NCBI GenBank assembly: GCA_009912575.1
Contig: WNDP01000020.1
Coordinates: forward strand, 1 to 42,309
Reading direction: 5' to 3'
Source: Acinetobacter bereziniae
GTDB lineage: Bacteria; Pseudomonadota; Gammaproteobacteria; Pseudomonadales; Moraxellaceae
DNA length: 42,309 nt
The notes below the pieces were generated by a model. That model worked only from the letters and a program-made list of their open reading frames with translations, searched no databases and was not told the origin of the DNA. Shown here in pieces: positions 4,244 through 36,443 of the stretch. The number at the start of each line of letters is the position of its first letter. Position 1 is the first letter of the stretch. A program made the position numbers and the translations under genes.

Positions 4244-5068
4244 TCATAGCTTATATAAGCGTTTAGGTGTATCTGTTTCGACTTGTTTACGTTCTGAGTC
4301 ACTCCAGTTGCGTGTCCATTCATCCCAAAATGCCAACAATGTGTCATAGCGATGGGTCGCAAAAGACACGGGCCAATCCGATCCCCAAAGCAAGCGTTCA
4401 GGACCAAACAGTTCTAAGGCAATATCAAGGTGGGCTTGAAAATCTTGTGCTTTGCAGTGCGCACCTGCTTCTGTCACTAAACCTGAAATTTTGCAGTTCA
4501 CATGTGTTAATGCGGCTAATTCTTTCATGTTCTTTTTCCACATAGTAAAACCATCACTGGAATAGATCTGTGGCTTGGCTAAATGATCAATCACCAACGC
4601 ATATTGATCATGCCGTTGAGAAAATTTTACGGCTGCATCCAAATCTTTCTGATGAATTAAAACGCCATAAAGCAACTCAGCTTGCTGAATTTTTTCTACA
4701 CCCAGATTAAATTGGTGATTGTTCAACATATAGGCTGTAGGATCAGGCTCATCTTGAAGCATGTGACGAAAGCCTTTTATCCGCTTATTTTGTTTGAATT
4801 TCTCCAACTGCATTTCTGCATCTTTTTTAAAATAAAACCACGCCACAATCCCTTTGATAATCGAATGTTGCTCTGCCAGCCCATTCAGATATTCATTTTC
4901 CTCCCAAGACGGTCTTGCCTGAACAGCGATCACACCCTCTATTCTGGCAGGCAATTGCACGAACAAATCTTCAGGTGACATGTCTTTTGCAATGCTACTT
5001 AAATCACCCGTCATCCAAGGGAATTCAACTGGATTGTATTTCCAAAAATGAATATGACTATCAATCAC
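4244..5068 (-). CDS. L-fuconolactone hydrolase, amidohydrolase superfamily (COG3618)
   Basis: A 274-residue TIM-barrel amidohydrolase that should hydrolyse L-fucono-lactone to L-fuconate. The metal-binding motif HIH is at residues 5-7 (MIDSHIHFW); a conserved LVIDHLAKP follows in the middle, and LLWGSDWPV carries the late catalytic Asp. These are the markers of the COG3618 lactonase group. The start is GTG (5066-5068) with a strong AAGGAG 7 nt upstream. A 230-nt gap separates it from the upstream dehydratase gene, enough for an internal promoter. Confidence 0.85.
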   Translation of the reverse strand: MIDSHIHFWKYNPVEFPWMTGDLSSIAKDMSPEDLFVQLPARIEGVIAVQARPSWEENEYLNGLAEQHSIIKGIVAWFYFKKDAEMQLEKFKQNKRIKGFRHMLQDEPDPTAYMLNNHQFNLGVEKIQQAELLYGVLIHQKDLDAAVKFSQRHDQYALVIDHLAKPQIYSSDGFTMWKKNMKELAALTHVNCKISGLVTEAGAHCKAQDFQAHLDIALELFGPERLLWGSDWPVSFATHRYDTLLAFWDEWTRNWSDSERKQVETDTPKRLYKL

Positions 5069-9282: not shown

Positions 9283-9473
9283 CTATTTTGAAGCTGCCTC
9301 AAAGGCTCCTAGACTCATCCCATTGAGATGCGAGTGACGCCTGATTCGATTGTAAAACATCTCGATGTAATCAAACACATTTGCACGAGCCATTTCTCGT
9401 GTTTTATAGATCCTTTTTTTAATTCTTTCCTTCTTTAAGCTGCTAAAAAATGATTCAGCAACAGCTTCACCAA
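9283..9473 (-). mobile_element. IS3-family transposase remnant (C-terminal end only)
   Basis: The minus-strand frame (9283-9498) reads AVAESFFSSLKKERIKKRIY, then TREMARANVFDYIEMFYNRI and a C-terminus RRHSHLNGMSLGAFEAASK. This is the end of an IS3-group DDE integrase, including the catalytic Glu of the AESFF motif. Upstream of about 9470 the expected GN.YDN segment is absent and the sequence switches to unrelated DNA. Only the last 60 or so residues remain, so it is inactive. Its broken edge abuts a truncated plus-strand gene. Confidence 0.8.
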
Positions 9474-9926
9474 ATGCCTGAAACAGAACTTGATGCAAAA
9501 ACCAAGCAATTTATGCAAAGTGATCTTAGTGAACAAAAAACATCTGATGATGACGTTCCAGTAAATTCTGAAATAGATTCCAATCAAGCCGTTCAAGACA
9601 ATGAGTCTCTCGGTACTGAACAAGCTGAAGTTGAAACACCGACACAAATCGAAGAGCAGTTTGATAATCGAGTTTATCGAGCTGAAGCCGCCGAAACGAT
9701 GGTGGGCTATATTGATAAAGTTGACATTACTTCACTCAATGAACAACCCATTACGATTACGAGTATGCAGATCAATCGTGGTAACTGTAGCATTACTAGT
9801 ATGTATGATTATAAAAATATGCGTTATGGTTCTGCCTCTTTGGTTTATCCACGCTCTAAAGCAGAATATATTCGTGAGGTGAGTATCAGTACAGCAAATG
9901 GAACATATACTTATAGGATTGGTTAG
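9474..9926 (+). pseudogene. Unknown gene, 5' end lost at the IS3 junction
   Basis: A plus-strand frame of up to 158 codons (open from 9450) ends at 9926. Only the part to the right of about 9470 is outside IS3 sequence, so the original start is probably missing. The remaining protein has an acidic, Gln/Glu-rich linker (DLSEQKTSDDDVPVNSEIDS and similar). A compact C-terminal part follows, with VYRAEAAETMVGYIDKVDI, a segment around GNCSITSMYDYKNMRYGS, and STANGTYTYRIG at the end. I do not recognise the family. The linker-plus-domain look suits an exported or envelope protein whose signal or membrane segment has been removed. It may still be translated from an ATG at 9474 or 9450. Confidence 0.45.
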
Positions 9927-10303: not shown

Positions 10304-10639
10304 TCAATCCCAATCTTTAATATTTTTTATACTTTTTAAAAAATTTAACATACTGATATCTAAATCTTCAGTAGACTTATATAAATAATCTATAAATAAA
10401 TCATCATGGTAGCTATTAATGTTTTGAATTTTTCTTCCTATCTGGGGGAAAATTTGATGATTAATTTCATTAATACTATATAATTTACTTAATTTCATAT
10501 TTACATCTATTTCCTCATGGAAAATAATTCTAAATTGAACAGTTAAATAACTAGAAAACTCTGAAAGCCACCTTATTTGAAGATCTCTATCTAATGCTAA
10601 GAAATCATTTTTTACTTCGACCCATAAGTCATTCATCAT
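10304..10639 (-). CDS. Small hypothetical protein, probable immunity protein of the Rhs toxin
   Basis: A 111-residue acidic, soluble protein (MMNDLWVEVKNDFLALDRDL at the start) with no signal peptide or membrane segment and no family I recognise. It is rich in Asp, Glu and aromatic residues and appears mostly helical. Its ATG overlaps the Rhs stop codon in an ATGA arrangement (10636-10639), which implies translational coupling. A small orphan gene placed directly after the variable tip of an Rhs protein is the standard position of the cognate immunity gene in polymorphic toxin loci. The function is therefore inferred from position, not homology. Lack of a signal peptide predicts a cytoplasmic target. 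Confidence 0.65.
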   Translation of the reverse strand: MMNDLWVEVKNDFLALDRDLQIRWLSEFSSYLTVQFRIIFHEEIDVNMKLSKLYSINEINHQIFPQIGRKIQNINSYHDDLFIDYLYKSTEDLDISMLNFLKSIKNIKDWD

Positions 10640-13581
10640 GGAATCTCCCTTGGTAACAAATTAACATTTATTCCCCTTTGTTCAAGAATATAGATTCTTG
10701 TATTTCCACCGTACACTGCACCATTAGGACTAACCATTAATGAATTATTACCATTACCTGGCCTTAAGGATTCTATAATAGAATTAGATGGTTGACCTCT
10801 CCAATATTCATAAGAAGAACTAGATTCTATTGTTGAATTTGGATGTATACGTCTTAATGGTATATTGTTTTGATTTGGTCTACATTGAGATTCTAATTGA
10901 CTATTAATCTGCAACCTATTTAATTCTCTTTGTAGATTTTGAATATCTCTTACACCAACTGGATCATTCATTGGTCTGTAAGTTCTATAAGTATAACTCG
11001 GGTCAAATTGCCTAATTTTACCCACATAGAATCTAATTTGGCCAGCCGTTATAGGGTCTATTTGTGATGATAATCCTCTTCGAGTTGGAGCTAAACCTAT
11101 TTGATCAACAAGATTAACTGGATTATTTTCCACATAAGCATAAGTATTTAAACCGCCAGCTAAACCGATCGGATCACTCTGCGTATAACGACCCATACTC
11201 GCATCATAATAACGATTCCAGTTGTACCAAAGTGCACTTTCAGCATCATAGTATTGACCTGGAAAACCTAAGTTAAAGTCTCCAATACTACTTTGCACCA
11301 CAGCACTATCATAACTACTCGTTTGAGCTTTCCAAACGATTGCTTGATTTGCGCCAGTAATCGCTTCAGCCCGACCTAAGTGGTCATTATGAATGTAATA
11401 CAGTTGATTATTACTCATAACACCAATTGGCTGATCACCCAACCAAATATAGATTTTCGCTAAGCTACCATTTTGCGATATAGATAAAGGACTTTCAGCG
11501 AGTATTCGACCATCAGGTGCGTAGACATAATTCACTGTTCCTCCATTACCTGATTTACGGCTACGAAGTTTAAAAACATCATAATCATAAGTTGTTGTTG
11601 TACTTCCTGTTTTGACAGTCTTTAGAAGGTTAAATGCATCATATGTATAATCGACGTTCCCACCATAACCCATTTTTCTCGTTAGGTTACCTAAGGCGTC
11701 ATAAGTAAAACTTTTCGCTTCCGCACCAGTCGTACTGCTTAATCGGTTTCCTTGACCAAGCACATAATTAGTCACAGCATTAGTATTACCTGCACGACTT
11801 GTACGATTGTAATTAGTATCATGTTGCCAGCTTTCTTTATACTCATTTGAAGAGGCAAGGCTTAATCGACCAAGAGCATCATACGCATAACTGGTTGTTT
11901 TGTTACTATCTAAGCCATTATTAATTTGAGTAATCCAATTGTTTGCATTATAGCTATGACTTAAACTTTGTATTCCAGAAGCAAGAATTCCTGTTAGTCG
12001 ATAATCTTGATCGTAACTGATTTGTCTTGATAGACCATTACCATAGGTCCAATTTTTGACTCCACCATAAGGTTCATAAGTAACATTACTGACTATCGTT
12101 TGAGTAGAGGCACCTGTTTTAAATTTAACTGCACTCACTCGATTGAGTCCGTCATATTCATAAATGACTTTATTATTATCGTTTTCTCGACTTTCACCAA
12201 TTAAGTTACCTAAGGCATCATAACTCCAATAAGTAGAATAAGTTACACCATTAATACTTTTGATTTGTACAGAAGTTTGACCGTCTTTCGTATAACCGTA
12301 GCCTGTGCTTGTAATCCCATCTGCTGTTGCACATAGCCGTCCAACGCTATTACTACAATTATCGTAAACCCAAGTTTGAACTTGACTGCCTGATTGTGCT
12401 TTGATTCTACGATTTAAAGTATCATAACTATATGTCGTTACGACATTATTCGCACGAGTTAAACTAATTAAATTGCCATCTATATCATACTCATATTTTG
12501 TTAATCCTGTGTCAGGGCTACTTATCGATAATAATTGACCAAGACCATCATATGTATATGTTGTTGTATTACCTTTTGTGTCTTTAACACTCGTTAATTG
12601 CCCAACACTATCATAACTATAGACAACACTCGAACCATCACTACGATTTTCATTAGCAACATTTCCTTGTGAATCATAAGTATATGTTGTAATTTTGCCT
12701 AAAGAGTCTGTTTTCTTAATGACATTCCCATTAGCATCATATTCATAGCGTTGATTTTGACCATTATTTCCTAAATCGGCTGTTGCCCATCCGAGTTGAT
12801 TTTGCTGATTACTTTTAGAGTAGCGAACAGAGCCACTATCTTTAAACGTAGTACTGAGCAACTCACCCAAATTTGAGTAGGTAAATTCTTGGCTACTTAA
12901 TGCTTGACCACCAGTACCATGAGTAATCCTAGCAACGGTACCATTATCATTATAGTAAATGGTTTCTATACTACCATTGCGGTTAATTTGTGTAGCGCCA
13001 AATGCACCATATTGATACGTTGTTGTACGTGATTGATTACTATCTAGTGTTTGTTTTTGACTAGTTATTCGACCACGAGCATCATAACTAAGCTCTGTTA
13101 TTAAGCCATTGGCATCAACAATTTTTCCAACATTACCTAAATTGTCGTAATTACTGTAGCTTGTCGTTTGACCTAATGCATTTTTGATTTGAATTAGATT
13201 TCCTATAGAATCATAATTATAAACTGTATTCTTGCCATTAATATTTTTCGCTACAGCACTCAATATCCCATTATTGTGCAGACTATAACCATACGTCGTT
13301 GTACTACATATTGTTGTACCTATTTTGCTACAAACTATTTCACTTTTTATACGATTTTTCGCTGAATCGTTTGCCCCATAATAAGTATAGGTTTGTTCAC
13401 GAATTAAAACATTAGAACCATTTAATATTTGAATATTTATAACTAATTCAGTTTCCCCAAGATAGCTATATTTCTGAATTTGCGCGTTAGAAAAATTACC
13501 ATTTTGAATACCTATAGTTTTTTGTATCACTCTGCCCAAGTTATCTCGTAGATAAGTAGTCTCTATACTATACCATTCCAA
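10636..13581 (-). CDS. Rhs/YD-repeat toxin, central and C-terminal part (downstream of a frameshift)
   Basis: A 981-residue frame made mostly of YD repeats (for example TYTYDGLGQLLSI, YEYDANGNVIKKT) that would form an Rhs cocoon. The Rhs core motif follows (GQYYDAESALWYNWNRYY, then SDPIGLAGGLNTYAYVENNP and ending NLVDQIGLAP). After this come about 149 residues of variable tip, the likely toxin, ending NTRIYILEQRGINVNLLPRE. I cannot assign an enzymatic class to the tip. The frame lacks its own N-terminus: it begins inside a sequence continuous with the gene at 13563-14813. The two frames are rejoined by removing one copy of a tandem CTATA at 13563-13572. It overlaps the immunity candidate by ATGA. 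Confidence 0.85.
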   Translation of the reverse strand: MEWYSIETTYLRDNLGRVIQKTIGIQNGNFSNAQIQKYSYLGETELVINIQILNGSNVLIREQTYTYYGANDSAKNRIKSEIVCSKIGTTICSTTTYGYSLHNNGILSAVAKNINGKNTVYNYDSIGNLIQIKNALGQTTSYSNYDNLGNVGKIVDANGLITELSYDARGRITSQKQTLDSNQSRTTTYQYGAFGATQINRNGSIETIYYNDNGTVARITHGTGGQALSSQEFTYSNLGELLSTTFKDSGSVRYSKSNQQNQLGWATADLGNNGQNQRYEYDANGNVIKKTDSLGKITTYTYDSQGNVANENRSDGSSVVYSYDSVGQLTSVKDTKGNTTTYTYDGLGQLLSISSPDTGLTKYEYDIDGNLISLTRANNVVTTYSYDTLNRRIKAQSGSQVQTWVYDNCSNSVGRLCATADGITSTGYGYTKDGQTSVQIKSINGVTYSTYWSYDALGNLIGESRENDNNKVIYEYDGLNRVSAVKFKTGASTQTIVSNVTYEPYGGVKNWTYGNGLSRQISYDQDYRLTGILASGIQSLSHSYNANNWITQINNGLDSNKTTSYAYDALGRLSLASSNEYKESWQHDTNYNRTSRAGNTNAVTNYVLGQGNRLSSTTGAEAKSFTYDALGNLTRKMGYGGNVDYTYDAFNLLKTVKTGSTTTTYDYDVFKLRSRKSGNGGTVNYVYAPDGRILAESPLSISQNGSLAKIYIWLGDQPIGVMSNNQLYYIHNDHLGRAEAITGANQAIVWKAQTSSYDSAVVQSSIGDFNLGFPGQYYDAESALWYNWNRYYDASMGRYTQSDPIGLAGGLNTYAYVENNPVNLVDQIGLAPTRRGLSSQIDPITAGQIRFYVGKIRQFDPSYTYRTYRPMNDPVGVRDIQNLQRELNRLQINSQLESQCRPNQNNIPLRRIHPNSTIESSSSYEYWRGQPSNSIIESLRPGNGNNSLMVSPNGAVYGGNTRIYILEQRGINVNLLPREIP

Positions 13582-14813
13582 TCCTTTTTAGAAGAAATAC
13601 GCCCATTTAAATCGTAGTTGTTCTCCATATTGCTATTAGGATAGTTATTTACTCCACTTCTTTCCACTCTTGCTAATTTATTTTTCTGATTATTAGTATA
13701 AATATATTTTGATACAGCACCGAGCGGATTTTTTACTATTGTATAAATATCGCCAAAAACTAACTTATCAACCTGAGTACCATCACTGCGACCACTTTGA
13801 TAGGCTTTATTTCCATTAAAGTAATAGGTATTGTACCGCTTACCATTAATCGTAATCCCACTTAATACCTGCGCATTAGCTCCATTTTCTCCATAATGAT
13901 ATGTTCGTGATCCAATACCATCAGGGTAAGTTACTGATGCCAAAAGATCACCATTATATGTGTAACTATAAATATTACCTGCTGGATCTATAACTTGAGT
14001 TAATTTTCCATTTTGCCAAATAAGCTTTATCATTTTTCCATTTGTATGAACTACTTTAGTTAAATTTTCTCCATCATAACTAAGTTGCCAACCAATTCCA
14101 GCACTATTCTTTTTATTCACTAACCTCCCTTTATTGTCGTAATATTCAGTTCCTCCATCCAAAAGTTTAACTAACCATTTCCCCATACTTTGATCAGATA
14201 GAGTTACTAATTCACCATTCCTTGTAAAAGTACCATCAGGTAAAACACGGTAATATTTGTATATTTCATATCCTACGATTCTATAATCAAAATTATGTCG
14301 CCATTTCAATCCAACTCTATTTGTAACCCCAATACCTTCAGATGAATTATAAAAACGGACAAACTCTAAAGGCATTTCACCAGTACTAGAGAAATCAAGT
14401 TCTTCTTGATATTTATACCCTGAACTTATTTGGATTGGGTTACATGTTTTATTATTTGTATCATGATTGAGTTCGGGAAAAAATTGTGAACCATTATTGC
14501 CAAGGAGTGATTCAGCAAATACATTGCGCTGCAAAATACGATCTAGGTCAAGACTACTCACTCGTTCAGCATAGGCTTGCATTGTGATTGTAGGTAATTG
14601 CTTTAGATCACTTCCCATGCTCATACACTGCTGTTTAATTTGCATCCATTTTTTGCAATCATTTGTTTGAGACGAAGTTCCTGTAGACTCATCATATCCA
14701 TTCCAACATTCGTAATCTGCTTCGTAGCACTCACTAGCAGAAACGGCAAAAGTTTCTACTGTTAAAAAAAATTGGAAAAATAAAATGATCGACCAACAAG
14801 TATTTTTTTTCAT
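13563..14813 (-). CDS. Rhs/YD-repeat protein, N-terminal part with signal peptide and DUF6531-like domain
   Basis: A 416-residue frame. It starts with a Sec-type signal peptide (MKKNTCWSIILFFQFFLTVE, cleaved near AVSA) and a short Cys-containing mature N-terminus (ECYEADYECW, QTNDCKKW). A DUF6531-type entry module follows (IQISSGYKYQEELDFSSTGE and LEFVRFYNSS) and then the first YD-type repeats. It ends prematurely at KKDWNGIV because of a 5-bp duplication; the expected continuation (NGIETTYLRDNLG) is in the next gene. A signal peptide rather than a PAAR or other type VI secretion adaptor suggests Sec-dependent export. A near-consensus Fur box lies 17 nt before the ATG. Confidence 0.82.
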   Translation of the reverse strand: MKKNTCWSIILFFQFFLTVETFAVSASECYEADYECWNGYDESTGTSSQTNDCKKWMQIKQQCMSMGSDLKQLPTITMQAYAERVSSLDLDRILQRNVFAESLLGNNGSQFFPELNHDTNNKTCNPIQISSGYKYQEELDFSSTGEMPLEFVRFYNSSEGIGVTNRVGLKWRHNFDYRIVGYEIYKYYRVLPDGTFTRNGELVTLSDQSMGKWLVKLLDGGTEYYDNKGRLVNKKNSAGIGWQLSYDGENLTKVVHTNGKMIKLIWQNGKLTQVIDPAGNIYSYTYNGDLLASVTYPDGIGSRTYHYGENGANAQVLSGITINGKRYNTYYFNGNKAYQSGRSDGTQVDKLVFGDIYTIVKNPLGAVSKYIYTNNQKNKLARVERSGVNNYPNSNMENNYDLNGRISSKKDWNGIV

Positions 14814-14830
14814 AATGGTTTAAAATTATC

Positions 14831-14849
14831 AATAATGATTATCATTATC
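14831..14849 (-). promoter_or_regulatory. Fur box upstream of the rhs gene
   Basis: On the rhs coding strand the 19 bases read GATAATGATAATCATTATT, 18 of 19 identical to the classical Fur consensus GATAATGATAATCATTATC. The plus strand contains a 17-bp perfect palindrome. A further GATAAT hexamer follows toward the gene. It lies only 17 nt from the start codon, with no other nearby gene facing it, so iron-dependent repression of the Rhs locus is the natural reading. Confidence 0.8.
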
Positions 14850-14904
14850 GTTAATTTGTATTTTTATTCAAGTATTAATTCCTTTTTTTCTTTGACCTTA
14901 AAAT

Positions 14905-15468
14905 AGCTTTATTACATAAACATCAGTATCTAAAATACTCCATTAAAGTTCTCAAATTTAAGTGAAATTCGTATGCGGTCTGCCTAAATCCTTGAGTTTA
15001 TTCAATACTGCAATATGAGCATAAATTTCAATGATTAAACTTTATCTATGATAGCTGACCATTTTTTCCATAATATCTTACCTAAATGTATGACTGTTCC
15101 AAGCACTTTATTGCGTCCTAGCAATCGAGTATTTATATTCTTCTAAGACTACTCGTTTTTTATTGTGAAATCTGGTTGGATAAATCACAGAGTATCTTTA
15201 AATCACTGACATTGTTACTGGTGTGCTAAAACACTCATATTTGTAATGTAAATATTAATATTTTTTACAATCTACAAATCGTCGTATCATTTGATGCAGT
15301 CCAACTCAACTTAGAATGTTTAACTAGACTTTGTACGAAGCCTGTGAGCATACGTAAAGTTAAACGAATATTAAACAGGACTAAATTACAGTGTTTGAGT
15401 AGATTTTGATTTTTCTCGTGTTGATTCTAATGAGACATACCTTGCAGACAGATTTGTGCAACCAAGTC
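14905..15468 (-). mobile_element. Degenerate IS5-family insertion sequence
   Basis: The minus strand retains pieces of an IS5-type transposase: MLTGFVQSLVKHSKLSW near 15300-15355, NKVLGTVIHLGKILWKKWSA near 15050-15115, and AHIAVLNKLKDLGRP near 14990-15030. They are broken by frameshifts and deletions. The ends resemble the terminal repeats of the relic at 33301-34065: TTTGTGCAACCAAGTC near 15453-15468 and AGCTTTATTACATAAA near 14905-14920. It is inactive. The stretch 15470-15660 shows only a short, non-homologous open frame. Confidence 0.7.
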
Positions 15469-15809: not shown

Positions 15810-16290
15810 TTTAATTATTACAACAAATTAATCCAAATCACTATACCTAGGGTTGCAATATGGTTTCAATGACTGAATTACAACTAAGTAGACAACATTG
15901 AAGTCATAAGAAAAATTAATTTCATATGAAGAATTAGATCGTGAGATTCGAACTCTATAATTAACTTTTAATAGAAACTATTTAGTTTTAATTCATTATT
16001 TATCAAATAATTACAATCTAAGTAAATCTTCAATATTTTATTATTTGTGCCAAATTTTGTGACAACGCCTTTTTTAAGCAATACTTTTTATAACAAGAAT
16101 TTGATGGTGATGGTGTCAGTTGAACTAGAAAAATAACATCCTGTTTTATTTAAATTTAATTTTGATAAAAATCAAATTTACCCAAACTTGACCCCATGCA
16201 TTTTAAATACTGACATGATCACTATCATATCTTACAATTCGATCTTAAATTTCCTAACAGAATTCTATTATTTATATTAGTCACCCAATT
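15810..16290. other. AT-rich non-coding stretch
   Basis: No reading frame, RNA gene or IS homology could be supported between the dusA fragment and the acyltransferase gene, other than the Zur-like site at its end. Short frames here have stops in all phases. Confidence 0.5.
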
Positions 16291-16309
16291 AGTGATACAT
16301 TATAACATA
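16291..16309. promoter_or_regulatory. Possible Zur box (degenerate)
   Basis: AGTGATACATTATAACATA matches the gammaproteobacterial Zur core (AATGTTATA-n-TATAACATT) in 8 of 9 positions of one arm and 6 of 9 of the other. It lies 22 nt before the start at 16332. Weak alone, it is listed because a stronger site precedes the next gene. Confidence 0.35.
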
Positions 16310-16331
16310 TCAATATTTTCTTACTTAATTT

Positions 16332-17476
16332 ATGTCTATATCTTCTCAACGTTTACAAGCAATTGATGCTCTTAGAGGTTTGGTTATCTTAATCATGATG
16401 GTCGATCACGTTAGAGAAACTTTTTACCTTCATCATCAAGTTCCTGATCCAATGCTTGTCCCTGGTACTGAAGAATCTCTTTTCTTCAGTCGAATATTGG
16501 CACACTTATGTGCACCTGTTTTTGTAATTTTAACGGGGCTATCCGCTTATCTTTATCAAGCAAAGAATAATCTAGCGATGACAAGAGAGTTTCTTTTAAA
16601 GCGGGGATTATTCTTAATTTTACTCGAACTAATTGTCATTAATTTTGCATGGACTGGAAACTTCCCTTCTGACATTGTTTACTTACAAGTCATATGGGCA
16701 ATTGGTATTAGCATGCTCGCTCTAGCAGCTCTGATTGGGTTACCAAAAAAATTGCTTTGGTTCATTAGCTTGCTGATAATTTTTGGCCACAACTTACTCG
16801 ATCATCTTTCATTTGAAAATATTCCAACTCTACATAACTTATGGTTAATCCTCCATGATAGAGGCTGGATTGTATTTGGAGATGTTATTCGTTTTAGAAC
16901 TTCTTATCCTGTTTTGCCTTGGATCGGGATCATTACACTGGGATACTGCATTGGTACAACAGTATTTAATCAATCTAAAACAATGCGTCAGAAGAATCAG
17001 ATCTTACTCAGCTTTGGTCTAGCGAGTATCGGAACCTTTGTTGTTTTACGGTATTTGAATTTTTATGGCGATCAAGCTTGGCTTGTAATGCCTTCATTTA
17101 CGAAAACTGCAATGAGTTTTATGAATTTTACTAAATACCCACCTTCACTTCTATTCACGCTTTTCAATGTAGGTGTTGGACTAATTCTATTAGTTTTGTT
17201 GCAAAAAGTTGAAAGTAAGCGTTGGGTTAAACCTTTAATTGTATTTGGTTCTGTGCCGATGTTTTTTATATCATCCACTTATATGTTTTAAAAGTTTTAT
17301 ACCTTATTGCTGTCAATATTTTTGGTAAAAATTACGGCGAATATTACGGTGTAGAAAGCGTTTCAATGCTTTGGACGATTGCTATTGTACTCAGTGTATT
17401 ACTGTATCCTCTAGTTTTTAAATTTTCTGAATTTAAACATAGAAATAAACATATCACTCTGCTTAAGTATTTCTAA
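16332..17476 (+). pseudogene. DUF1624/HGSNAT-like membrane acyltransferase, frameshifted near the 3' end
   Basis: A multi-pass membrane protein of the heparan-alpha-glucosaminide N-acetyltransferase-like family. It opens with LQAIDALRGLVILIMMVDHV, followed by LAHLCAPVFVILTGLSAYLY, both typical of DUF1624 proteins. The continuous frame stops at 17289-17291 after FFISSTYMF. Restoring one T to the run of six at 17262-17267 gives MFFYIIHLYVLKVLYLIAVN and continues to a stop at 17474-17476, adding the last membrane segments (SMLWTIAIVLSVLLYPLVFK). So the gene is either recently broken or misread at a homopolymer. It lies upstream of a TonB receptor; whether it modifies a metallophore or surface glycan is unknown. 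Confidence 0.78.
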
Positions 17477-17510
17477 CTGAATGTAAGTTTTCGCTCTGTT
17501 TAAGATAGGT

Positions 17511-17547
17511 GATTGGAAATGGTTCGAATAGCTAACCACTTCCAATC
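17511..17547 (+). terminator. Terminator-like hairpin after the acyltransferase gene
   Basis: GATTGGAA-a-TGGTT (17511-17524) pairs with AACCA-c-TTCCAATC (17534-17547), a 13-bp stem with one mismatch and a 9-nt loop. The following tail is only moderately T-rich. It separates the acyltransferase from the TonB receptor. Confidence 0.6.
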
Positions 17548-17587
17548 TTATGAAATATTTAAGAAATAAAATGCAAAACACTATTTA

Positions 17588-17606
17588 AATGTAATAATAT
17601 AACATT
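17588..17606 (+). promoter_or_regulatory. Zur-like operator upstream of the first TonB receptor
   Basis: AATGTAATAATATAACATT is a 19-bp palindrome (8 of 9 pairs) that differs by a single base from the enterobacterial Zur core AATGTTATA-n-TATAACATT. It is centred 34 nt before the receptor start codon, where it would overlap the promoter. Zinc-dependent repression is inferred; it was found by eye against remembered consensus. Confidence 0.6.
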
Positions 17607-17630
17607 ACACTTGGTCTATGTTTTCTCATT

Positions 17631-19721
17631 ATGCTTTCCAAATTTTATCTAATATCTTCATGTTCATTACTCTCTAATTTTGTATGGGCACAAACATCTG
17701 ATTCTACGAATCCCCTTCCAACAATCGTTATACAAGCTCAAAAAACAGATCAAGATGCCTTAACGACATCTGCGTCAACAAAATTTACCCATGATGTACT
17801 TGATACCCCCTCTAGTCGTAGCTTTCTTTCTCAGGAAGTTTTAAAACAGCAAGATGTACAACGTATAGATGATGCCTTAAACCAAGTCAGTGGCGTATTC
17901 AATCAAACCAATTATGGTGGTGGCTTCTGGGATAATTTTTCATTTCGTGGATTTAGTACTGACCCGAATATCGGACCGCAAATTATTCGAAATGGATTAA
18001 GTGTAAATCGGGGTCTCAGTGCGTCTCGGGATATGGTCAATATTGAATCTTTAGAGTTTCTCAAAGGCCCAATGGCTGCACTATATGGACGAGGAGAAAC
18101 TGGTGGTTTACTCAATATCAATACGAAAAAGCCAGCATGGGAATCATCTAGTGAAATCAATTTACGAGCGAATAGTCTAGAAAAATATCGTGCTAGCTTT
18201 GAGCATACCGCCCCTATTAACGACCAATTAGCATATCGTTTTGCTATTGCACATGAAGATAATCAGAGTTTTCGGGACTATGTGAGTAATTCACGCTGGT
18301 TTTTTTCTCCGCAATTAAGCTGGAAGTTATCCGATCGAACTCAATTGGACTTAGACACAGAATTCACTCGCGTAGAAGGATTATTTGATCGTGGTATTAG
18401 TGCTTATCAGAAACAAATTGTGATGAATCCAAAAACCTATACAGGTGAACCAGATGATGGAGATCATTTACAAACTGATAATTTTTATCAAATTCGACTC
18501 ACGCATGAGTTAAATGACGATTGGAAGGTCAAAAGTGCTGTGAGTGCGAAAGATAGTTTGTTAAAAGGTTTTTCAAGTGAACCTCGTCGTATACAAAACG
18601 ATGGTCGTACTTTAGAGCGCCAGCGACGTTATCGGGATAATAAAAGTGATGATGTGTTATTCCAAACAGAACTGTTAGGCACGATCCAGCAAGACTGGGC
18701 AAAACATGAAATATTGTTGAGTGCGGAAATGGGACAAATGAAATATAGCCAATTGCAGCTACGCCGTAATCATAGTTCAGATATACCCAACGTCATTGAA
18801 ATTTACCGACCTACCTATGGAACATATTTACCAGACCTTCCCCTATTTATTGACACTGAGGATCGACAAAAATACTTCGCCTTTAATGTCCAAGATCAGA
18901 TATTCTTAAATGATCAATGGAGTGTTTTACTTGGTCTACGCTTTGATCATGTCACACAAGAATTTGTGAATAAGATTGCCACGACCTCAAATCAAAAAGA
19001 CTTACAACAAACCAGTCCACGTTTTGGTTTGAACTATCGTTTGAGTGATGCATGGTCAGTCTATGCCAATTATGGCCAATCATTTGCAATTAATAGTGGA
19101 ATGGATCGCAATAATCAAACCTTTGACCCAGAAAAAGGTCAAAGTTATGAGATCGGCAGTAAATACCAACTCAACCCACAAAGTCTGATCAGTATTGCAT
19201 TATTTAAAATGGATAAGGAAAATGTGCTCACAACAGACCCAATAGATAACAACTTCCAGATAACTGCTGGAGAAGTCTCTAGCCAAGGGATAGAGCTAGA
19301 TGTCGAAACACAACTGAGTGACCAGTTATCGCTCCGCGCCAACTATAGCTACACAGATGCTCAGGTTGAGAAGGATCAAACACTTGCGAAAGGTTCCCGC
19401 TTAAGCAACGTTCCCAAGCATAGCGGTTCAATCAGTACCAACTATGAATGGATGCTATCTGACAACTCAAATGTAGGCGTTGGAGCAACAGCTATTTATG
19501 TTGGGAAACGTAGCGGTCATAGCACTGATAACGGATTCAATCTTCCTGAATATACATTAATTAATTTAAATGCTTACTATGCGCCAAGTGAACAAATACG
19601 TTATCAATTCAACCTGAATAATCTTCTCGACAAAACCTATTACACGGCAAGTTATAGTGAGATGTGGATACAGCCTGGTGAACCGTTGAATGCATCATTG
19701 GCAGTGCAATGGAAATTTTAA
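17631..19721 (+). CDS. TonB-dependent outer-membrane receptor (metallophore/siderophore type) A
   Basis: 696 residues. The signal peptide (MLSKFYLISSCSLLSNFVWA, cut before QTSDS) is followed by a TonB-box-like TIVIQA near residue 32. The plug domain includes GFWDNFSFRGFSTDPN and LEFLKGPMAALYGRGETGG, and the 22-strand barrel ends in a terminal Phe (LAVQWKF). It is clearly paralogous to the receptor at 21793-23916, sharing the FWDN.SFRGFSTDPN plug motif, the FDRGI segment and the final QPGEPL. Family members import ferric siderophores, but the Zur-like site and the His-rich neighbours make zinc or copper chelates possible substrates. A hairpin terminator at 19738-19771 follows. Confidence 0.87.
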   Translation: MLSKFYLISSCSLLSNFVWAQTSDSTNPLPTIVIQAQKTDQDALTTSASTKFTHDVLDTPSSRSFLSQEVLKQQDVQRIDDALNQVSGVFNQTNYGGGFWDNFSFRGFSTDPNIGPQIIRNGLSVNRGLSASRDMVNIESLEFLKGPMAALYGRGETGGLLNINTKKPAWESSSEINLRANSLEKYRASFEHTAPINDQLAYRFAIAHEDNQSFRDYVSNSRWFFSPQLSWKLSDRTQLDLDTEFTRVEGLFDRGISAYQKQIVMNPKTYTGEPDDGDHLQTDNFYQIRLTHELNDDWKVKSAVSAKDSLLKGFSSEPRRIQNDGRTLERQRRYRDNKSDDVLFQTELLGTIQQDWAKHEILLSAEMGQMKYSQLQLRRNHSSDIPNVIEIYRPTYGTYLPDLPLFIDTEDRQKYFAFNVQDQIFLNDQWSVLLGLRFDHVTQEFVNKIATTSNQKDLQQTSPRFGLNYRLSDAWSVYANYGQSFAINSGMDRNNQTFDPEKGQSYEIGSKYQLNPQSLISIALFKMDKENVLTTDPIDNNFQITAGEVSSQGIELDVETQLSDQLSLRANYSYTDAQVEKDQTLAKGSRLSNVPKHSGSISTNYEWMLSDNSNVGVGATAIYVGKRSGHSTDNGFNLPEYTLINLNAYYAPSEQIRYQFNLNNLLDKTYYTASYSEMWIQPGEPLNASLAVQWKF

Positions 19722-19737
19722 AATATTTGAATGAATG

Positions 19738-19771
19738 GGTTAAGGCTAGCTAAGCTGATACAGCCTTAACC
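19738..19771 (+). terminator. Hairpin after receptor A
   Basis: GGTTAAGGCT (19738-19747) and AGCCTTAACC (19762-19771) form a perfect 10-bp stem with a 14-nt loop, 16 nt after the stop. The tail is weakly T-rich, so termination may be partial and let transcription reach the PepSY gene. Confidence 0.6.
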
Positions 19772-34065: not shown

Positions 34066-34189
34066 ATAACCCCTATTAACAATTCGATCTTTTTTTTAAA
34101 ATATTGAGGCTCAATGACTTACCTCAATTAAATAAATTAAAAATTTAAAAAGAGCATAAATGTTTATTGATTTTTACCCTTATTTTAAA

Positions 34190-34204
34190 TGATAATAATT
34201 ATCA
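34190..34204 (+). promoter_or_regulatory. Perfect Fur box (7-1-7)
   Basis: TGATAATAATTATCA is an exact match to the 7-1-7 Fur recognition motif (TGATAAT-n-ATTATCA). It lies 28 nt before the start of the TonB siderophore receptor. Iron-repressed expression is expected. Confidence 0.85.
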
Positions 34205-34232: not shown

Positions 34233-36443
34233 ATGAAACTTTCAACACTAAGCTTATCTGTACGTCATGTTCTTTTCAGCTCTCTCACCTTGATCAGTTG
34301 TACCGCAATCGCAGAAGACTTCTCAACACAATTGCCAACAATCGAAGTAAAAGCGGATACAGAAAAAACCACGGGATATACTGAAAGAAAATCTCGAGCA
34401 GCAACGAAGCTTGATCTGACCTTGAAGGAAACTCCACAATCCGTAACGGTTATGACTAGCCAACATATCGAAGATCAAAATTTAAATACCGTTGAAGAAG
34501 TTTTATCACAAACACCTGGCATTTATGTACAACGCTATGGTGCACAAGGTGCAGTTGGGAATGGTGGAGAATACACATTCTATTATGCGCGGGGAAATCA
34601 AATCTTGAACTATCAGGTAGATGGTGTAATGACCTCTCCTGCAACCAGTGGCAAAAATGGTTCATCTCTCAGCAATTTAAATCCCATTATTTATGAAAAT
34701 ATTACCGTACTCAAAGGTGCTGCTGGACTCACCAATGGTGCAGGTTATCCAAGTGCCAGTATTAATCTCAATCGTAAACATGCAACCAGTACTACACCAA
34801 CAGGTCAGATTCAACTCAATGTAGGATCAGATCAAGCGATTCGCTCAACCTTTGATGCACAAAGTGCCTTAACATCGTCAGGAGATGTCCGTGGACGAGT
34901 CGTCGCTGCTTATGGTCAAAGCAATTCATGGCGTGATTGGGGAGATCAACGTGATGCCACACTTTATGCAGTAGTTGATGCAGATCTCAGCGAAAAAACG
35001 CAGTTCAGTGTTGGTTCTCTACTCAGTCGCTCTCGTCTCAATGGACAAGGTGTACACGGGATTACTGTATTTGGTGATGATGGCACATTGATGCCCTTCA
35101 ATCGTGAATTTAACCCCAATGCACGTTGGGCTTATAGCAATGTGGATACACTCAATTTATTTACTGAGTTAAAACATGAATTCAACAATCGTTGGAAAAT
35201 TCAAGCCAATTATAATTATACCAAACAAGACATTGATGCTTTATATGGCGTCATTGGTGTTGCCCAAGTCGACTACACCAAAATGACTGCATCACTTGCA
35301 GCATCACAAAATGATTTCAGCCCAGAAGAACATAGCTTAGATCTTTCAGTCACTGGCGACTACTCTCTTTTGGGACGTGAACATGAATTGATGCTTGGTG
35401 CAAGTTATCAAAATCTAAAGAGTAATAACAATGCTTATGCAGGATATAGTAGTAAAGATACGATTAACTTAAACACATGGAATGGGCAAATTGCTCTCCC
35501 GCCAGAAGCTCGCATTGCGACTGGTGTAAGTAATAAAGACTATCAGCAAAGTGGCTACTATCTTGCAACTCGACTTAATCCGATTGATTCCTTACATATT
35601 ATTGTGGGTGGGCGTTTGTCCAATTATGATTTAAAAACCCATTCTACAAATACAGTTAGAAATACAGTTTCAGATTCTAAAATCAAAGAATCCAATCAAT
35701 TTACACCTTATGCAGGGATTACTTTTGATATCTCCTCATATCTTACTGCTTATGCGAGTTATACCAATATTTTCTTACCGCAAACCAACCGTGATTATGC
35801 GTACAATATGTTAGACCCACAGCAAGGCGATAATTATGAAGGCGGGTTTAAAGCAAGTTTTTATGATGACCGATTAAATATGAGTGCCGCTTATTTTCAA
35901 GCAAAAATGGATAATGTTGCTGAATCTGCTGGAAAATATAGTGATACAGATCCCGCTGTCATCAATGGATGGACAACAGCGGGATCAACTTATTATCACG
36001 GCGTCAAAGGTGCAAAAACGCAAGGTTTTGAACTTGAAATTTCAGGGCAAATTTTACCTGAATGGAATATTCAAGCAGGCTATACCCAAGCTGAAACGAA
36101 AGATAAAAATGGTCAACGTATCAATACCGATCGCCCTACACAACAATTTAAATTATTCACCACCTACAACTTGCCCGTGATGGAAAATAAATTAACAGTT
36201 GGTGCAGGTGTAAATTGGCAAAATGAATTTTATGATAAAAGTAAAACAGGTCTAAATTATCAAGCTTTTCGTCAAAAATCCTTTGGCTTGGTTGATGTAA
36301 TGGCTCGTTATGCAATCAACAAAGATCTTAATCTTGGACTAAATGTCAGTAATTTAACTGATGAAAAATACCGTCTAAATACGTGGGCAAATACTTATGG
36401 CGATCCACGACGTTATACCGCATCAATTCAATATAAATTTTAA
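34233..36443 (+). CDS. TonB-dependent siderophore receptor D (FhuE/FpvA-like)
   Basis: 736 residues. The signal peptide ends near CTAIAEDF; TIEVKA is the TonB-box-like segment. The plug carries TKLDLTLKETPQSVTVMTSQ, then LNTVEEVLSQTPGIYVQRY and YQVDGV, typical of the TIGR01783 siderophore receptors in the FhuE/FpvA/FecA group, which import ferric hydroxamate or mixed-type siderophores. The barrel ends with IQYKF. A perfect Fur box precedes it and an esterase gene follows 153 nt downstream in the same direction, so the pair likely handles one ferric siderophore. Confidence 0.9.
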   Translation: MKLSTLSLSVRHVLFSSLTLISCTAIAEDFSTQLPTIEVKADTEKTTGYTERKSRAATKLDLTLKETPQSVTVMTSQHIEDQNLNTVEEVLSQTPGIYVQRYGAQGAVGNGGEYTFYYARGNQILNYQVDGVMTSPATSGKNGSSLSNLNPIIYENITVLKGAAGLTNGAGYPSASINLNRKHATSTTPTGQIQLNVGSDQAIRSTFDAQSALTSSGDVRGRVVAAYGQSNSWRDWGDQRDATLYAVVDADLSEKTQFSVGSLLSRSRLNGQGVHGITVFGDDGTLMPFNREFNPNARWAYSNVDTLNLFTELKHEFNNRWKIQANYNYTKQDIDALYGVIGVAQVDYTKMTASLAASQNDFSPEEHSLDLSVTGDYSLLGREHELMLGASYQNLKSNNNAYAGYSSKDTINLNTWNGQIALPPEARIATGVSNKDYQQSGYYLATRLNPIDSLHIIVGGRLSNYDLKTHSTNTVRNTVSDSKIKESNQFTPYAGITFDISSYLTAYASYTNIFLPQTNRDYAYNMLDPQQGDNYEGGFKASFYDDRLNMSAAYFQAKMDNVAESAGKYSDTDPAVINGWTTAGSTYYHGVKGAKTQGFELEISGQILPEWNIQAGYTQAETKDKNGQRINTDRPTQQFKLFTTYNLPVMENKLTVGAGVNWQNEFYDKSKTGLNYQAFRQKSFGLVDVMARYAINKDLNLGLNVSNLTDEKYRLNTWANTYGDPRRYTASIQYKF

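What the first reader, a model, noticed from the sequence alone, without database searches (positions are those of the whole stretch)
14813..14849. An Rhs toxin gene behind a near-perfect Fur box
The rhs coding strand carries an 18/19 match to the classical Fur consensus 17 nt before the start codon, and no other gene faces the site. The same window has a perfect Fur box before a siderophore receptor, so Fur control is plausible. An Rhs/YD polymorphic toxin derepressed by iron limitation would tie competitor killing to iron starvation. The match is seen directly; the regulation is inferred.
Basis: partly seen in the sequence, partly recalled or inferred. Interest (0 to 1): 0.75.

Follow-up and report, generated by a model that had tools for sequence, protein, structure and literature searches.

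The report
Iron-switch site before secreted Rhs toxins
A near-perfect binding site for the iron regulator Fur really does sit in front of an exported Rhs-type toxin gene in this Acinetobacter genome, and nine of the ten members of that toxin family that I found carry one, which suggests that these bacteria turn on a competitor-killing weapon when starved of iron, although the copy in this window is broken.

Summary
At 14831-14849 (- strand) GATAATGATAATCATTATT differs from the 19-mer Fur consensus at one base, 17 nt before the rhs start codon. It is the best 19-mer match in the 5.16-Mb genome. No other gene faces it.

The regulation is not just this one site. The gene belongs to a small family of Rhs/YD-repeat proteins with a signal-peptide-like start and, in the six scanned, no PAAR domain (10 found: 7 in Acinetobacter genomes, 3 in viral contigs). 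Scored with a matrix from published iron-responsive Fur sites of A. baumannii, 9 of 10 carry a site at least as good as the weakest published one. Of the comparison sets, 3 of 228 control promoters, 2 of 30 vgrG genes and 0 of 11 other Rhs loci do.

So this copy probably makes no full-length toxin. The iron-toxin link is best supported for the family, not for this gene.

Binding, induction and killing were not tested. Fur-controlled weapons are known (microcin, T6SS); my searches found no paper linking Fur to such Rhs toxins. New variant of a known kind.

The parts
14831..14849 (-). Fur box, 18 of 19 to consensus, 17 nt before the rhs ATG; overlapping 25-mer registers 14825-14849 and 14831-14855
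14844..14871 (-). possible promoter: TTGAAT (14871-14866), 16 nt, GATAAT (14849-14844); the second hexamer overlaps the Fur box
   Evidence: consensus match only, the region has no excess over shuffles (37 found, shuffled mean 36.8)
13563..14813 (-). 5' piece of the rhs gene, 416 aa: signal-peptide-like start, DUF6531, first YD/RHS repeats; ends at a frame break
10636..13581 (-). 3' piece of the rhs gene, 981 aa in another frame: RHS repeats, RHS-associated core, C-terminal tip
10639..11058 (-). C-terminal tip (toxin candidate), 64% identical to the tip of the second copy of this genome and 41.5% over residues 57-138 to the end of a Streptomyces polymorphic toxin-type HINT protein
10304..10639 (-). 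small ORF, 111 aa, overlapping the rhs stop codon: immunity-gene candidate; 30.6% identical (E 4e-10, local two-sequence comparison) to the ORF behind the second copy
14937..15370 (.). decayed IS5-family (ISAba13/IS17-like) remnants upstream of the promoter, at 14937-15034 and within 15037-15370
9283..9498 (-). remnant of an insertion-sequence transposase (rve_2) downstream of the rhs module
34190..34204 (.). perfect 7-1-7 Fur box before the FauA/FhuE-like siderophore receptor (34233-36443)

Best explanation
The site is a genuine Fur operator of a family of Sec-exported Rhs polymorphic toxins of Acinetobacter. With enough iron, Fur-Fe2+ sits on the promoter (in the window the box overlaps a possible -10 element) and blocks transcription. 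In iron starvation Fur leaves, and the Rhs shell with its C-terminal toxin, together with the overlapping immunity candidate, is made and exported to the periplasm through Sec and from there by an unknown route. In this way competitor killing is tied to competition for iron, as for Fur-controlled microcins. Shown: the sequence match, its rank in the genome, its recurrence before family members, the module anatomy. Inferred: binding, repression, export, killing, immunity. In the window the promoter is intact but the reading frame is broken, so derepression would yield at most a shell fragment.
For: Only single-mismatch 19-mer of the whole genome. With a matrix from the published A. baumannii sites (PMC3055841, section 7 with Table 1 read), 9 of 10 family members reach the lowest published score of 13.9 within 150 nt of the start, against 3 of 228 control promoters, 2 of 30 vgrG genes and 0 of 11 other Rhs loci. 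An earlier home-made matrix gave 5 of 7 whole-genome members against 2 of 228 controls. Whole-genome scans that knew nothing of rhs list the rhs sites G031:C4:1466298 and G032:C18:15052. Several other Fur-like sites of this genome precede TonB-type receptors, ECF-sigma-like genes and a sodB-like gene (names by eye). Six Fur-family (PF01475) hits are in the genome. The eight members outside this genome are open frames of 1364-1447 aa, stop to stop.
Against: No binding or expression data. A. rudis (G082) lacks a site (score 2.6). The distance from box to start varies (17, about 1, and 51-56 nt) and MAFFT lines up the boxes of only four of seven promoters (C32, G032, G031 C4, G016), placing the window's box elsewhere, so common descent of all the boxes is not shown. 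With the home-made matrix the A. guillouiae C8 copy had no site (5.9); only the published matrix finds one (19.1). The 19-mer scan lists no rhs site for G016, G082 or G031 C8. L131-L133 are close relatives of G016, so independent lineages are fewer than ten. Start codons were chosen by me. 7 of the 24 Fur-like places of this genome lie inside ORFs of 80 aa or more, so the motif alone is not proof. Both copies in this genome are frame-broken. The rhs start codon lacks a clear ribosome-binding site (by eye).
Confidence: 0.82

Rival explanations
1. The box binds Fur, but the locus is a relic: the rhs gene is a pseudogene between decayed insertion sequences and the box is left over from the time when the gene worked.
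For: Frame split into 416 + 981 aa; second copy on C32 also split (805 + 572 aa); insertion-sequence remnants on both sides; neighbour gene 16332-17291 also frame-broken near its end.
Against: The box itself is the best 19-mer match in the genome, not eroded; the tip and small ORF are still open. Small assembly errors in a 335-contig draft cannot be excluded. Says nothing against control in the intact relatives.
Confidence: 0.6
2. Chance: AT-rich promoters throw up such palindromes and the rhs link is accidental.
For: The genome is AT-rich; 3 of 228 controls pass, one extra place in this window passes (5044), and 7 of 24 Fur-like places of the genome lie inside ORFs.
Against: 1 reversed-pattern control match against 30; 0 of 500 shuffles of the window promoter; 9 of 10 family members; binomial 8e-9 for 5 of 7, and 4e-7 with lineages collapsed by hand to 4 of 6, both with the home-made matrix and a background rate of 3 in 229.
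Confidence: 0.04
3. The site serves another metal regulator of the Fur family (such as Zur), or Fur acts here as an activator.
For: The genome has six Fur-family hits.
Against: The site scores at the level of published iron-responsive sites of A. baumannii; a Zur-like palindrome of different sequence stands before another gene of this window (17590-17604).
Confidence: 0.08
4. The Rhs protein is loaded on the type VI apparatus, and Fur co-controls it with a vgrG gene that also has a Fur-like box in this genome.
For: Own vgrG (C277) has a Fur-like site 15 nt before its start, shared by its 90% identical ortholog in G059. A vgrG lies about 15 kb from the A. guillouiae C8 rhs gene (G031:C8:206631).
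Against: Family members start with a hydrophobic signal-peptide-like stretch (by eye) and the six scanned with Pfam show no PAAR domain. No vgrG is seen by eye beside rhs in the four loci whose ORFs I read (L058-L061); L062 and L063 were not read.
Confidence: 0.1

Closest known systems
Microcin Mcc17978 of A. baumannii ATCC 17978 (PMC10333792, passages read)
   Same: antibacterial weapon of the same genus with a putative Fur box before the gene; its promoter responds to iron chelation in a reporter assay
   Different: a small secreted peptide that enters target cells through the receptor Fiu; not an Rhs protein
Fur-repressed type VI secretion systems (EAEC, Salmonella Typhimurium, Edwardsiella tarda and others; review PMC10482370, passages read)
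   Same: low iron switches on an antibacterial system through Fur
   Different: in the passages read Fur controls secretion-system promoters (clpV is named for Salmonella), not an exported Rhs toxin gene; the Rhs family here looks independent of that apparatus
RHS polymorphic toxins exported through Sec (Zhang et al. 2012, PMC3482391, passages read; WapA recalled and seen in a listing)
   Same: signal peptide, RHS repeats, variable C-terminal tip, small neighbour ORF
   Different: no iron regulator is described in the passages read ('iron' does not occur at a word start in the held text); here a Fur site recurs
Tse15 of A. baumannii, a T6SS Rhs effector (PMC11461821, start of abstract seen in a listing)
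   Same: same genus, Rhs cocoon with a C-terminal toxin

Membership tests
Fur-repressed gene of Acinetobacter | operator matching the genus Fur motif | tested here: met
   score 20.6 against 13.9-26.5 for 21 published sites
Fur-repressed gene of Acinetobacter | site conserved before orthologs | tested here: met
   9 of 10 family members against 3 of 228 controls; A. rudis is the miss
Fur-repressed gene of Acinetobacter | binds Fur and is induced by low iron | not testable with these tools
   needs bench work
Rhs/YD-repeat polymorphic toxin | RHS repeats and RHS-associated core | tested here: met
   PF05593, PF03527, TIGR03696 over the two pieces
Rhs/YD-repeat polymorphic toxin | exchangeable C-terminal tip with a small downstream ORF | tested here: met
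   tip shared with a Streptomyces toxin and unlike the tips of relatives outside this genome (by eye); small ORF overlapping the stop; orphan tip plus small ORF in A. gyllenbergii
Rhs/YD-repeat polymorphic toxin | one intact reading frame in the window | tested here: not met
   416 + 981 aa in two frames; open in the eight members outside this genome
Rhs/YD-repeat polymorphic toxin | toxicity and immunity | not testable with these tools
   needs bench work; no Pfam match and no PDB-sequence match of the tip
T6SS PAAR-Rhs effector | N-terminal PAAR domain | tested here: not met
   no PAAR in the six family members scanned (the C32 copy only in its first piece); signal-peptide-like N-terminus instead
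Sec-exported protein | N-terminal signal peptide | tested here: inconclusive
   hydrophobic, mostly positively charged starts in all 10 by eye; no signal-peptide predictor was used

The most novel reading that the evidence does not exclude
Sec-exported Rhs toxins of Acinetobacter, including copies carried by prophages beside baseplate genes, form a class of iron-starvation weapons: mobile toxin genes that have repeatedly been placed under the host's Fur, with box positions (17, about 1, 51-56 nt) that hint at more than one origin.
Probability: 0.55. Interest if true: 0.72.

Novelty: new variant of a known kind. Interest (0 to 1): 0.58.

Why it matters
If true, it extends the rule that bacteria attack competitors when iron runs short from microcins and type VI machines to a family of large exported Rhs toxins, and shows prophage-borne toxin genes wired to a host nutrient regulator. 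It gives a concrete condition (iron chelation) under which to look for the activity and the still unknown export route of Sec-type Rhs proteins in Gram-negative bacteria, which may be silent in rich medium.

Tried and rejected
Home-made Fur matrix from 24 sites found in these genomes: it supported the link in 5 of 7, but its sites were unverified (one was the vgrG site, at least one lies inside an ORF, and two stand before control genes), and it missed the A. guillouiae C8 site; replaced by the published matrix. The first run of the published matrix cut the C32 promoter just after the start codon and gave 8.3; with 15 nt beyond the start allowed for family and controls alike it gives 17.2.

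T6SS as the carrier: weakened by the missing PAAR domain and by the signal-peptide-like starts. Fur control of vgrG genes in general: rejected, 28 of 30 examined have no site (the 30 were one fetched locus per genome out of 127 genomes with a match).

Other Rhs loci as a comparison: 11 were scored (L071-L078 of the order, L010-L012 of the genus); the remaining Rhs-like hits (L003-L005, L013-L032) were not scored with the published matrix. The order-level loci look GC-richer by eye, so they are a soft control.

Nature of the tip: no Pfam, PDB-sequence or viral-contig relative; in 369 genomes of the class and 175 of the genus only this genome's own two copies were found. A single-sequence fold was useless (mean pLDDT 31), so no fold search was made. 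Plasmid relatives of the N-terminal Rhs piece are distant (840 records, all under 60% identity) and their promoters were not examined. A look at one plasmid stretch that matches the IS remnant showed no annotated feature.

Empty-site comparison: the closest relative found for the right flank (G025) shares 16285-19747 at 93%; the rest of the 18 kb read has no further match to the window except a 67% stretch inside another receptor gene, so it shows a breakpoint but no empty site.

Full report
What was claimed and what is there. The window is contig C113 of a 5.16-Mb, 335-contig draft. At 14831-14849 the - strand reads GATAATGATAATCATTATT, one mismatch from the 19-mer Fur consensus, 17 nt before the ATG at 14813. 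Within the window 3 strand-wise matches with up to 3 mismatches were found against a shuffled mean of 0.04. In the whole genome there are 30 strand-wise matches at 24 places, the reversed pattern gives 1, and the rhs site is the only place with a single mismatch. Several of the other sites stand before what look, by eye, like TonB receptors, ECF-sigma genes and sodB, so the motif marks an iron regulon here; but 7 of the 24 places lie inside ORFs of 80 aa or more.

Scoring with a genus matrix. Eijkelkamp et al. 2011 (PMC3055841, author name recalled; section 7 with Table 1 read) list 22 Fur sites of A. baumannii ATCC 17978 found upstream of genes induced more than 4-fold in low iron; they report that over 80% of the 41 genes with a well conserved box were induced more than 2-fold. 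I built a symmetric 25-column matrix from the 21 distinct sites. Left out one at a time they score 13.9 to 26.5, median 21.6. The window site scores 20.6 in two overlapping registers offset by six bases (14825-14849 and 14831-14855). In the whole window the receptor box scores highest (22.5 at 34185) and a third place, at 5044, reaches 15.1.

The family. The first rhs ORF (416 aa) has a signal-peptide-like start, DUF6531 and YD repeats. At E 1e-30 the profile A1 finds 7 members in 5 of 176 Acinetobacter genomes, two of them in this genome; at the looser limit, 28 of 176 genomes have some Rhs match. Three more members come from viral contigs (L131-L133). More distant relatives exist in 8 of 390 genomes of the order besides this one. 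A midpoint-rooted tree puts the ten members in two groups with full support: one of six (A. guillouiae C4, A. gyllenbergii, G016, L131-L133) and one of four (window, own C32, A. rudis, A. guillouiae C8); C32 sits on a long branch. All ten have hydrophobic starts by eye; Pfam finds RHS repeats and no PAAR domain in the six that I scanned (window in two pieces; five others).

Conservation of the box. Within 150 nt before the start (15 nt beyond it allowed), 9 of 10 members score at least 13.9: window 20.6, own C32 17.2, A. gyllenbergii 21.5, A. guillouiae C4 15.5, A. guillouiae C8 19.1, G016 22.8, L131 23.3, L132 19.3, L133 23.3; A. rudis scores 2.6. Of 228 control ORFs of 200 aa or more from 20 stretches of the same five genomes, 3 reach 13.9. 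Of 30 vgrG genes 2 do. Of 11 other Rhs loci (8 of the order, 3 Acinetobacter) none does. An earlier matrix made from sites of these genomes gave 5 of 7 whole-genome members against 2 of 228 controls. The whole-genome 19-mer scans, which knew nothing of rhs, list the A. guillouiae C4 and A. gyllenbergii rhs sites, but none before the rhs genes of G016, A. rudis or A. guillouiae C8. Limits: start codons were chosen by me (TTG for A. guillouiae C4, an internal ATG for C8); L131-L133 are near G016; box-to-start distances differ (51-56, 17, about 1 nt) and a plain MAFFT alignment lines up the boxes of four of seven promoters (C32, A. gyllenbergii, A. guillouiae C4, G016) but not the window's, so either the boxes moved or they arose more than once.

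The window copy is broken. The two ORFs (13563-14813 and 10636-13581) overlap in different frames, where the eight members outside this genome are single open frames of 1364-1447 aa, stop to stop. The second copy of this genome, on C32, is broken at another place (805 + 572 aa). A neighbour, the acyltransferase-like gene at 16332-17291, also loses its frame near the end: the other matches stop at residue 313-315 of 319 and lie in frames of 386-398 aa. So either this region is decaying (insertion-sequence remnants lie on both sides) or the draft has small errors. Either way the toxin claim for this very gene is weak while the promoter is intact.

Module anatomy. The tip (10639-11058) is 64% identical to the tip on C32 and was otherwise not found in 369 genomes of the class and 175 of the genus; its residues 57-138 match, at 41.5%, the end of a Streptomyces polymorphic toxin-type HINT protein that is likewise followed by a small overlapping ORF. 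The 111-aa ORF at 10304-10639 overlaps the rhs stop and is related to the ORF behind the C32 copy (30.6%, E 4e-10), not to the Streptomyces one in that comparison. In A. gyllenbergii an orphan tip (L061:3982-4230) with its own small ORF follows the rhs gene and is, by eye, nearly the tip of the A. guillouiae C4 gene: a usual sign of polymorphic toxins. The activity of the tip is unknown; a single-sequence fold failed.

Prophage members. Around the rhs gene of L131, 8 of 10 ORFs scanned match PHROGs, one of them a baseplate protein (phrog_1369), and the G016 copy has the same neighbours by ORF sizes. L132 and L133 come from the viral collection; their neighbours were not examined. These four copies have Fur scores of 19.3-23.3.

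Mechanism. The simplest reading is classical Fur repression: iron-loaded Fur covers the promoter, and iron starvation releases it. Only the DNA part is shown. Export through Sec to the periplasm is inferred from the N-terminus; how the protein then reaches other cells is open.

Literature. Fur-box weapons are known: A. baumannii microcin Mcc17978, whose promoter responded to chelator (PMC10333792, passages), and type VI systems in several genera (PMC10482370, passages). Zhang et al. 2012 describe Sec-exported RHS toxins (PMC3482391, passages). My searches for Rhs or polymorphic toxins together with Fur or iron listed no paper on this link. They cover open-licence papers only, I judged by titles and abstract starts, and three listings were cut (20 of 250, 12 of 137, 12 of 22).

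Verdict. Observation confirmed; the idea of iron-controlled Rhs toxins is supported by comparative evidence for a family; the window gene itself is probably not a working toxin gene.

Noticed in passing
G000:C277:283-301 (L065, L134): A Fur-like box stands 15 nt before a vgrG gene (907 aa) that is followed by a Tle1-like phospholipase gene; its 90% identical ortholog in G059 (L135) has it too, a 76% identical one (L136) and 27 others of the 30 examined do not.
   Followed up: partly
17590-17604: A Zur-like palindrome TGTAATAATATAACA (1 mismatch to a recalled Zur motif; the search found 2 places with up to 2 mismatches, shuffled mean 0.38) stands before the TonB receptor at 17631 and is kept in the relative G025 (L172:15844-15858), so this receptor may answer to zinc rather than iron.
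   Followed up: partly
16332-17291: Acyltransferase-like gene (HGSNAT_cat) loses its frame near the end; the other matches found lie in frames of 386-398 aa.
   Followed up: yes
L058:2431-2492 and L058:7342-8629: The second rhs copy of this genome is also frame-broken, and an xseA-like gene (name by eye) on the same contig is split into two ORFs; either decay or small assembly errors.
   Followed up: partly
L061:3650-4899: Behind the A. gyllenbergii rhs gene lie its small neighbour ORF and an orphan tip with a second small ORF; by eye the orphan tip is nearly the tip of the A. guillouiae C4 gene: tip exchange cassettes.
   Followed up: no
L131, L060: Family members sit in phage-like regions near a baseplate gene; L060 ends in a gene that looks by eye like a terminase with an intein-like insert.
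   Followed up: partly
L058:4849-4870: In the C32 copy the Fur-like box nearly touches the start codon (about 1 nt), so Fur could also hinder translation start, or the start lies elsewhere.
   Followed up: no
5044-5068: A third place in the window passes the published Fur matrix (15.1), at the start of the ORF 4244-5068 on the - strand.
   Followed up: no
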